Positions 57,801 through 60,800 of a DNA stretch of 64,000 nucleotides are shown one piece after another. A program made the position numbers and the translations under genes. The first letter of the stretch is position 1. Each line of letters opens with the position of its first letter. Location: contig JACYXH010000477.1 of NCBI GenBank assembly GCA_026745465.1, forward strand, positions 168,501 through 232,500, given 5' to 3'. This stretch comes from Lota lota. Taxonomy: Eukaryota > Chordata > Actinopteri > Gadiformes > Lotidae. The notes beneath the pieces were generated by a model. The model saw nothing but the letters and a program-made list of their open reading frames with translations, ran no database searches and was not told the DNA's origin.

Positions 57801-60800
57801 GTGGTGTACAGAATGAATGAATGTGGTGGTGACAGAAAGGTCTGCCCGCCGGTGGAAATTCCCCGCACAAGAGTCCTCTGTTGACACTTTGCGGTTACTA
57901 ATGTTGGATGAACAGGATGTGGTTGTGGAGTTTTTTTGGTTTGATTGTTTTGTTGTCGTTTTGAGTTGCTTACAAGTACGGTATAATAACCCACACCCTC
58001 ATTGGTTAAAGTAGGAATGTGTAAGATTGAGCCCCTCTCAGTTAGTATGCAGAGACTCGCAGGAAGAAAGATCTCCCATCTGTGCTCGATAAACATAAGC
58101 GAACCCCCATCTGTGAGAGATAAGAGAGGCTTGAGATGAAATGCCCACAAAGGCTACGACGAAGCCTCCTTCGCTGAGAGCGAAGGAGGTCAGTATACAC
58201 CATATTGAGTAGACCTATACTAAACATATAAAATGGCTCTCAGATTGATTATTGAACATCATTCATTCGTCCTTGCGGATATGATTGTGTGGGTTCAATC
58301 TGTCTGAAACAAATGAAATATATGAAAGGTCTCTTAAATTAATCAAGCAAATTTATCGATCGGCTATAATATAAAACACAATAAGTATGTGTAGTTGTGT
58401 CGGACACACATCACCATATGCGCATTGTTGAGTTTTCAACTGCTTGATCCATTATAATTCATTCTACCATATTATTAAAATAGGTCGATCAGTGTTGACT
58501 TGTCACTCAAACAAATATGTCTCTCAAATGTTACAATATATATAAAACGAACTAATTGTGTGTGTGTTGTGGCGTCTGACACACACCGCCATATGCGCAG
58601 CGTGGAGTTCAGTTGCTTGATTCTTCATTGTTCGTTCGTTCACGTAAAAGCTCAGGACAGTGTGTGGCACTTGGGAAAATATTTGTTAAACATTACCCTG
58701 TGTACCCAAGTCTAATTAGAAATAAATCAATGAGCTATTAACAATAGGAAGCAAAAAAGGGAGAATATTGAACATCAAACTGAATTCATCATCGCGGATA
58801 GAATGTTTATAATGTATGTGTTCCATCTGTCTGAAACAAACCAAATATATAAAACGCCTCTTAAACAAATCAATACAATTTACGATAGGCTATAATATCA
58901 AACTAGATACAATAAGAGTGTGTATGTTGTTTGCGGACACATCGTCATATGCGCAGATTGGAGTTCTCCACGGCTTGATTTGTTATTATTCGTTCTTTCA
59001 TATAACTATACAATTAAAAAGGTTAATTGCCATAGGCTTTAATATAAAACTAAATTCAATTAGTAGGAGTAGGAGTTCTCCACGGCTTGATTCGTTATAA
59101 TTCATTCGTTCAAATAATTATGTACCTTAATTAGTAAGGTTAATGTCATTGTTGCCTTTATTGTTATTATACCTTATCTCCTACTAAACAGTGTAGGCCT
59201 TTCCTTGTGTAACCCCTCAAACAAACACTACAGCCGTTCTGTCTGGGGATTAATATCTAATGGGCCTAATAGGCCCCATCACGTGACTTACAGTTCTGAT
59301 GTTAACCGATATGCCTATGTGACTTGATTAATGCATAGATACGTCTTCCAAATGCAAGACACAGTTTGAGACTAAACAAATGTCTGGCAGTCAAATGTCT
59401 AAATAATCCATCTATTCTCAAAACGAAAAGAAAAAAAACAGGAAAACAAAATGCACACCATGCATGGTTCAATGCTGAGGTGTGTGTGTGTGTGTGTGTG
59501 TGTGTGTGTGTGTGTGTGTGTGTGTGTGTGTGTGTGTGTGTGTGTGTGTGTGTGTGTGTGTGTGTGTGTGTGTGTGTGTGTGTGTGTGTGTGTGTGTGTG
59601 TGTGTGTGTGTGTGTGTGTGTGTGTGTGTGTAGGCCTGCCTCTGGTTGGCAGTATTCTGCGGGTGCTCCTGTATCACAGTGAGTATCTGGAGAACAAGGC
59701 CCCGAGCAACGCGACCGACGACGACAAACCAAAATATGACCAGCTCCAGGCCCTGCAGGAGACAACAGCAGAATTCCTGGCTGAAATCATCCACTCTCTC
59801 CTCAAGGTAGCCGACACACAAAGTGTGTGGGTGTGGGTGGGTTGGTGTGTGTGGGTGTGAGACAAGATAAACAAATTTGAATCAGGACAACAATGGAAGT
59901 TGTGAAGTGGATTCTTTGTGCTGTTACTGTGTGTAACGTTTCTTCTCTATCTCTCCAGGAGGAAGTGGCTGAGCTGGTGAAGAGCCAGTACCTAACACAG
60001 CAGACGTGTCAGGCAGCAGTAGGCTGCTTACTCCCTCAGTTCAAGCCGGCAGTAAGTCTTCAGCTCGTTTACGTCAGAAAACTAAATTACCGGGCTGGGC
60101 AATCAAAAAATGTAAGCCGTCTCCCCTGGCTTTACTAAAACATCCATTACCATTATCATTTCTCAAAATGACAATTCGGCCAAAAGCGCATTTAGCATGC
60201 CTGCCACACATGTAAACAATGACACTATAGCACTTTCGTATTTTGGAATAACATCGGTCAGTACAGAGTTTGCGTACAACATAACAGTGAATCGCCTTAC
60301 AAGTACTTCACAAAATGTCTTATCGCAAAGACCAAAGTGCTATGTTGCTATTGCCAGGGCTGTTACAAGCTTTTTGGGGGGCCTATGCTAAATGTTGTTT
60401 GGGGGCCGCTATTTTGTGATACTATGGTGGGCTGATTCCAACAACCTTTCCATCACCGACATCTTCATCTCCAGTGCTTTCTGTGCTGCAGAGACTGGTT
60501 GGACAATGCCTCACCATCCACATTTTTTTAAGTTAAGCAGCACTCCCAAGTCAGACACTCACTTCACCCAGTGTTTCAAACTTTCCTTTAGTAACTCAAT
60601 GGTGGTGTCCACAACCACATTAAAGAATGTGGCTTCTAGCCTCTTCACGGCATCTTTGATAGACTCGTCTGGGGCTTCATAGGCAGAGAGTTTCCTTGTG
60701 TTTCTTAGCCTGTTCTCTGTGAGCACAGCTACGACATTCATCTCCTCACAAATGTCTTTAGCAGAGGCCCGAGCTACAGCAAAGCAAAGGCTTTTTTTCA

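What the first reader, a model, noticed from the sequence alone, without database searches (positions are those of the whole stretch)
59481..59640. (TG)75 directly against a splice acceptor in saal1
The acceptor of exon 11 is TG-repeat followed by TAG with no pyrimidine tract. Long TG runs next to acceptors are known to alter exon inclusion (CFTR exon 9, through TDP-43 binding UG repeats). Exon 11 is 173 nt, so skipping it would break the frame. Repeat length, which must vary in populations, could therefore tune full-length SAAL1.
Basis: partly seen in the sequence, partly recalled or inferred. Interest (0 to 1): 0.7.

Follow-up and report, generated by a model that had tools for sequence, protein, structure and literature searches.

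The report
Long TG repeat forms splice acceptor
In a fish saal1 gene a 152-base TG repeat fills the place where the normal signals before an exon should be, and a sample from the same genome suggests that many other genes, some of them essential, start exons in the same odd way, so the repeat is more likely a tolerated spacer than a dial on saal1.

Summary
Confirmed: the window reads (TG)75 then TAG; exon 11 of a saal1-like gene starts at 59634 and is 173 nt. This acceptor keeps the frame to a 446-aa end; skipping exon 11 puts TGA exactly on the exon 10/12 junction. The run has no A and no AG, so a branch-point A must lie at least 155 nt upstream. It is not a saal1 oddity: in the same 575-Mb genome (TG)40TAG occurs 1302 times, and of the 100 listed places read, 13 open a homology-supported exon right after TAG (CAD twice, FH, UTP20, ULK, WASP, dynein, GH38 mannosidase, five NLR copies); by a coding score 11 of 100 look like exons, 20-fold over random TAGs. 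CA-sense runs (60 read) show no excess. No CA partner was seen in saal1 or seven other introns, so the zebrafish AC...GT bridge does not apply. Best reading: UG runs between a distant branch point and the acceptor are tolerated as an AG-free spacer, with normal inclusion. TDP-43 tuning of saal1 remains possible but has no support here, and the same layout at essential genes argues against strong repression. No RNA data were available.

The parts
57479..57664 (+). saal1 exon 10 (186 nt); donor CAT|GTAAGA at 57665
   Evidence: gene model
57665..59633 (+). intron 10, 1969 nt; its longest CA stretch is ACACACAC
59471..59478 (+). predicted distant branch-point candidates: A59471 (TTCAA, 162 nt from the acceptor G) and A59478 (CTGAG, 155 nt)
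   Evidence: motif scoring with rough weights typed from recall; prediction only; the best score here is the lowest of the 8 introns
59478..59479 (+). last AG before the repeat; upstream limit of the 154-nt AG exclusion zone
59480..59631 (+). perfect (GT)76 run, without A and without AG
59631..59633 (+). TAG acceptor of exon 11 (T shared with the repeat)
   Evidence: frame test
59634..59806 (+). saal1 exon 11, 173 nt, donor AAG|GTAGCC
59651..59652 (+). competing downstream AG (GGCAG|TAT), 19 nt inside the exon with a more pyrimidine-rich context; its use shifts the frame
59959..60051 (+). saal1 exon 12; its first bases GA after the T that ends exon 10 make TGA if exon 11 is skipped

Best explanation
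The TG run is a microsatellite that lies, and probably grew, between the branch point and the acceptor AG of intron 10. Because UG repeats contain neither A nor AG, expansion moves the branch point away (here at least 155 nt) without offering the spliceosome a wrong AG; the first usable AG after the branch point is still the TAG of exon 11. Exon 11 is therefore probably included as the normal form, recognised with a distant branch point and help from exonic sequences or UG-binding proteins. The same arrangement recurs before exons of other genes in this genome, so it looks like a common tolerated 3' splice-site layout here and not a saal1 regulator. Shown: geometry, absence of A and AG, frame, recurrence in the 100 places read, excess over random TAGs, lack of a CA partner in the eight introns looked at. 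Inferred: the branch-point position, scanning to the first AG, normal inclusion, growth in place.
For: Last A 156 nt from the intron end against 4-33 nt in the 11 other introns; AG exclusion zone 154 nt. Of 100 (TG)40TAG places read out of 1302, 13 begin homology-supported exons, 9 by search with the match starting at residue 1-4 in the better of the searches run and 4 NLR copies by near-identity to L102. For CAD the junction is exact: the preceding exon ends at dihydroorotase residue 117 and the exon after the TG run starts at 118 of the same PDB chain (8pbq). Exon-like score 10 or more in 11 of 100 against 24 of 4413 random TAGs, 20-fold, p 1e-10; 7 of 96, 13-fold, p 3e-6 with the NLR copies counted once. 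The reverse complements of the same 100 flanks give 1 of 100. CA-sense runs 1 of 60 against 167 of 6894 random CAGs, no excess. Seven other introns: TG runs 98-154 nt, nearest A 100-170 nt upstream. One NLR intron is 167 nt in all: donor, about 55 nt more, TG run, AG. Distant branch points with AG-free zones and first-AG search are established (PMC1431707, passages).
Against: No RNA evidence of inclusion. The branch-point-like signal just upstream of the runs is not significantly better than before 64 background TG runs (p 0.067), and saal1 has the lowest score of the 8. Exons with large AG-free zones are more often cassette exons in human (68 of 235 against 19.8% overall; PMC1431707, passage). 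The total number of CA-sense acceptors cannot be told from the TG total with 60 CA flanks (0 verified of 60 has probability 0.25 under equal totals), and the direct score comparison of TG with CA, NLR copies counted once, is not significant (p 0.12).
Confidence: 0.6

Rival explanations
1. One reading: TDP-43 or another UG-binding protein coats the (UG)76 tract, hinders recognition of exon 11 in a length-dependent way, and skipping yields a decay-prone transcript, so repeat length sets SAAL1 output.
For: Skipping gives TGA at the junction, 91 nt upstream of the last exon junction. TDP-43 binds UG repeats and causes CFTR exon 9 skipping (PMC12171016, passages). Weak acceptor context and a donor with C at +5. 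A human cortex study relates TARDBP binding to GT repeat length (PMC13174678, passages).
Against: The same layout stands before exons of CAD, FH, UTP20 and others. The reading frame of exons 11-13 is kept, so inclusion must be substantial. No data on a length effect.
Confidence: 0.17
2. The UG tract folds into a string of left-handed pUG quadruplexes (12 repeats each, room for 6), which shortens the path from branch point to AG and makes the acceptor usable.
For: Repeats of 24 or more form double pUG folds in vitro, like beads on a string; human pUGs are said to be enriched near splice sites (PMC12276007, introduction passage and whole discussion). Structure between branch point and 3' splice site can shorten the effective distance in fission yeast (PMC9508853, passages).
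Against: Folding is slow in vitro, half-life at least 13 min. Nothing here tests folding in cells.
Confidence: 0.12
3. The branch point is not an upstream A but a U or G inside the repeat, at the usual distance, with exon definition doing most of the work.
For: No A at all between A59478 and the acceptor's own A; non-A branch points are known as rare events (recalled).
Against: No motif can be told apart within a uniform repeat; A-containing candidates exist within 40 nt upstream of the run in all 8 introns scored, though not significantly above background.
Confidence: 0.08
4. The zebrafish AC...GT class: a CA run near the donor pairs with the UG run and bridges the intron, replacing U2AF2.
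For: The class is known in fish (cited in PMC9198270, passage; the original paper is not held).
Against: The longest CA stretch is 8 nt in saal1 intron 10 and 4-5 nt in the seven other stretches upstream of TG acceptors. The two long AC runs seen, upstream of CAD and UTP20, lie beyond verified preceding exons.
Confidence: 0.03

Closest known systems
CFTR intron 8/9 (TG)mTn tract before exon 9/10
   Same: polymorphic TG repeat next to an acceptor; exon loss gives a non-functional product (PMC7911278 and PMC12171016, passages)
   Different: 11-13 repeats and a T tract between repeat and AG in CFTR; 76 repeats touching the AG here; regulated skipping was not testable
Zebrafish introns with complementary AC and GT repeats at opposite ends (Lin et al. 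2016; recalled, and cited in PMC9198270)
   Same: fish introns with a GT repeat near the 3' splice site
   Different: no AC partner in saal1 intron 10 or in the seven other stretches examined
Human distant-branch-point exons with long AG exclusion zones (PMC1431707, passages)
   Same: AG-free zone over 150 nt upstream of the acceptor; branch point inferred at its upstream end
   Different: the zone here is a pure UG microsatellite without any A, so the usual escape (a hidden close branch-point A) is excluded
Human APOA2 exon 3 with (GU)16 in place of the pyrimidine tract (recalled; no such paper among the 2 listed or the 12 of 57 listed)
   Same: GU repeat replaces the pyrimidine tract of a used acceptor
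   Different: about five times shorter; a single human gene, whereas the layout recurs here across genes
Tandem-repeat load of Atlantic cod and haddock genomes (PMC5241972, PMC5894186, abstract and passages)
   Same: very dense, long dinucleotide repeats; 5.7% of the cod assembly, mean 84 bp
   Different: the passages seen do not describe repeats as acceptors; the species of this window is not given

Membership tests
Distant-branch-point acceptor (AG exclusion zone class) | AG-free zone of 100 nt or more upstream of the acceptor | tested here: met
   154 nt
Distant-branch-point acceptor (AG exclusion zone class) | no branch-point A at the conventional distance | tested here: met
   nearest A 155 nt from the acceptor G
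Distant-branch-point acceptor (AG exclusion zone class) | good branch-point and pyrimidine tract at the upstream end of the zone | tested here: inconclusive
   TTCAA / CTGAG candidates only, best score near the background median; UTP20 and ULK have T-rich stretches there
Distant-branch-point acceptor (AG exclusion zone class) | branch point mapped by lariat | not testable with these tools
   no RNA data
AC...GT bridged U2AF2-independent fish introns | complementary AC repeat near the donor of the same intron | tested here: not met
   saal1 and 7 further stretches (in L135 the donor was not located)
CFTR-type TDP-43-repressed exon | UG repeat upstream of the acceptor | tested here: met
CFTR-type TDP-43-repressed exon | length-dependent exon skipping | not testable with these tools
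   no RNA or genotype data
U12-type intron | RTATCCTT donor (recalled) | tested here: not met
   donor is GTAAGA
SAAL1 gene | homology to SAAL1 | tested here: inconclusive
   no hit in Pfam or PDB; identity by recall of the human protein

The most novel reading that the evidence does not exclude
In this fish lineage bare (UG)n microsatellites, without an AC partner and without a pyrimidine tract next to the AG, have become a recurrent class of 3' splice site at something like 90-280 exons for (TG)40TAG alone, some perhaps polymorphic in length and independent of the usual U2AF recognition, so that every individual may carry a different set of branch-point distances.
Probability: 0.35. Interest if true: 0.8.

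Novelty: new variant of a known kind. Interest (0 to 1): 0.55.

Why it matters
It suggests that in a vertebrate genome the last 80-150 bases of an intron can be nothing but TG repeats and the exon must still be used, including in essential genes. That makes a direct test possible of how the spliceosome finds an AG far from the branch point, whether UG-binding proteins such as TDP-43 hinder or help, and whether highly mutable repeats at acceptors create splicing differences between individuals. It also warns that a TG repeat at an acceptor is not by itself evidence of regulated skipping.

Tried and rejected
AC...GT bridging: no CA partner. Repeat read as coding (VC)n: the in-frame upstream acceptor at 59391 lacks a pyrimidine-rich context and depends on repeat length. 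Downstream AG at 59653 as the true acceptor: breaks the frame. U12 intron: donor does not fit. A haplotype copy with another TG length: exon 11 occurs once in the assembly. Flank TAGGCCTGC as part of a mobile element: the other six (TG)16TAGGCCTGC places share no further flank by eye. Branch-point enrichment before the runs: p 0.067, not claimed. The reversed-pattern control (1302 against 554) was set aside because composition alone can cause it.

Limits of the class test. The 100 TG flanks are all the places that one search listed (contigs C1-C69 in order), not a random draw of the 1302. Of the places that one search listed for CA, 60 were fetched: the first 40, and 20 picked from contig C13 before seeing sequence. 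The random TAG and CAG sites, the TG-run density and the branch-point background come from 20 stretches of 10 kb of one contig, C479. The score cut-off of 10 was chosen after seeing the TG rows. The strict donor filter misses saal1 exon 11 itself; with a relaxed donor the counts are 18 of 100 TG against 45 of 4413 random TAGs, and 2 of 60 CA against 305 of 6894 random CAGs. Homology searches covered 14 of the 100 TG loci and 2 of the 60 CA loci: 9 TG loci were supported (L053 only just above the Pfam cut-off), 5 were not and are not counted (L121 with Pkinase at E 0.03, and L045, L047, L060, L083), although some look like exons; neither CA locus was supported. Four NLR copies are counted by likeness to L102. 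L116 and L142 were not searched. With NLR copies counted once, supported exons are 9 of 96 against 0 of 60 (p 0.011), but the score comparison of TG with CA is 7 of 96 against 1 of 60 (p 0.12). The preceding UTP20 exon that I had first taken as adjacent is not: the protein numbering leaves a gap of about 40 residues, so a further exon must lie between and that intron is shorter than assumed; this does not alter the CA result.

Full report
Observation. The window holds an uninterrupted GT run at 59480-59631, 152 nt. I rebuilt the gene by eye and script: 13 exons, 446 aa from MDRNPSPPP, one terminal stop. Exon 11 is 59634-59806 and 173 nt. Joining exon 10 to this acceptor keeps the frame to the end; the frame of exons 11-13 stays open in 27 of 5000 shuffles. 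Of 17 AGs tried only three keep the frame, and I judge the other two implausible. The name saal1 is recalled, not shown: neither Pfam nor PDB gave a relative.

What is odd about it. The eleven other introns of the gene have an A within 4-33 nt of the intron end; here the last A before the acceptor's own is 156 nt from the end, and there is no AG for 154 nt. Branch points in human lie on average 29 nt from the acceptor (PMC9508853, passage). So the branch point is either far upstream or not an A. Candidates are A59471 and A59478, both directly before the run, both weak. In the literature on distant branch points, long AG-free zones can be false because a repeat hides a close branch-point A (PMC1431707, passage); a pure UG run excludes that escape.

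Skipping. Exon 10 ends in T and exon 12 begins GA, so skipping exon 11 makes TGA on the junction: a 332-aa product with its stop 91 nt before the exon 12/13 junction. Predicted decay is inference.

Is it special to saal1? The window's own assembly, 575 Mb in 867 contigs, could be searched. It is loaded with TG repeats: 64 runs of 12 or more units and 16 of 40 or more in 200 kb of one contig, a load like that reported for cod (PMC5241972). (TG)40TAG occurs 1302 times, (TG)40CAG 507 times, (CA)41G 7459 times. I read 248 nt after the TAG at the 100 places listed. Eleven score as exons with a donor, against 24 of 4413 random TAGs from the 200-kb sample, and against 1 of the 100 reverse complements. 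Nine are supported by homology that starts within the first four residues after the TAG: CAD dihydroorotase (L031, PDB E 8e-20), CAD MGS-like domain (L030, Pfam E 1.5e-7), UTP20 (L046, 2e-12), fumarate hydratase (L082, 1e-26), a dynein heavy chain closest to DNAH3 (L049, 3e-21 and 1e-20), a GH38 mannosidase (L075, Pfam 1e-6), an ULK MIT domain (L053, Pfam 1e-4, just above its cut-off), a WH1 domain (L035, Pfam 1e-5), and an NLR leucine-rich-repeat exon (L102). With four near-identical NLR copies (L072, L101, L103, L104) that makes 13 of 100. It extrapolates to 169 (93-276) such acceptors for TAG alone, if the listed places are typical.

The CAD case shows a junction to the residue. The exon upstream matches dihydroorotase up to residue 117 of PDB chain 8pbq, where a GAG|GTAACC donor stands 506 nt before the acceptor end; the exon after the TG run matches from residue 118 of the same chain. 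The protein runs on without a gap, so the TAG behind the TG run is the acceptor.

Strand control. TG and CA runs are the same object on opposite strands. Of 60 CA-run flanks, 1 scores as an exon, below the random CAG rate of 167 in 6894; the two that were searched had no homology support. Supported exons 13 of 100 against 0 of 60 give p 0.0016, or 9 of 96 against 0 of 60 with NLR counted once, p 0.011. The score comparison TG against CA with NLR counted once is not significant (p 0.12). In totals the two strands cannot yet be separated, because CA runs followed by G are much more numerous. So TG-sense runs are enriched at acceptors over their own null; that UG as such is needed is suggested, not shown.

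Anatomy of the others. Upstream of seven further TG acceptors the TG run is 98-154 nt and the nearest A is 100-170 nt from the acceptor; one of the seven, L135, belongs to L083, whose exon had no homology support. The longest CA stretch in these is 4-5 nt, and 8 nt in saal1 intron 10, so the zebrafish AC...GT bridge (PMC9198270, passage; original not held) does not apply; for L135 the donor was not located. The neatest case is an NLR intron of 167 nt in total: donor, about 55 nt more, the TG run, AG. In UTP20 and ULK a T-rich stretch lies directly before the run, as if the repeat had grown between the pyrimidine tract and the AG. Branch-point scores before the runs are higher than background but not significantly (p 0.067), and saal1 is the lowest.

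Reading. The simplest account is that UG microsatellites in this repeat-rich genome grow between branch point and AG, where they are tolerated because they create no AG, and that acceptors keep working at distances over 100 nt. Since CAD, FH and UTP20 exons carry the same layout, long TG at an acceptor cannot in general mean strong skipping. pUG quadruplexes could shorten the gap, though their folding in vitro is slow (PMC12276007, discussion).

Novelty. Known pieces: TG tract at CFTR, GU in APOA2 (recalled), AC...GT introns in zebrafish, distant branch points with AG exclusion zones, pUGs enriched near human splice sites (PMC12276007, passage). Among the titles listed by searches (open-licence papers only, lists capped) none describes bare TG runs of 40 or more units as recurrent acceptors in fish. 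I file it as a new variant of a known kind.

Noticed in passing
61094-61219 and 55783-55814: Two more pure TG runs in saal1 introns, (TG)63 in intron 12 and (GT)16 starting 38 nt after the donor of intron 3; the three runs of 8 or more units in the gene all read TG on the sense strand.
   Followed up: no
58286-59121: Intron 10 holds two to four diverged copies of three direct-repeat families, 60-88% alike, of unknown origin.
   Followed up: partly
13730-19854 and 37246-42945: Long minisatellites (units of about 27-81 nt and about 96-420 nt) that might be mucin-type coding repeats (not tested).
   Followed up: no
L101-L104 and L072: NLR leucine-rich-repeat exons repeatedly carry a (TG)40 or longer run right at their acceptor; repeat and exon may have been copied together when the family expanded.
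   Followed up: partly
L030 and L031: Two different CAD exons on one contig, about 6.5 kb apart, both have (TG)40TAG acceptors.
   Followed up: partly
L009-L028 sample: TG runs in the 200-kb sample reach at most 142 nt, and the longest in the window is 152; a ceiling near 150 may be biological or an assembly limit.
   Followed up: no
L065: The reverse complement of this (TG)40TAG flank scored 22.9 as an exon with a donor; a gene may lie on the other strand.
   Followed up: no
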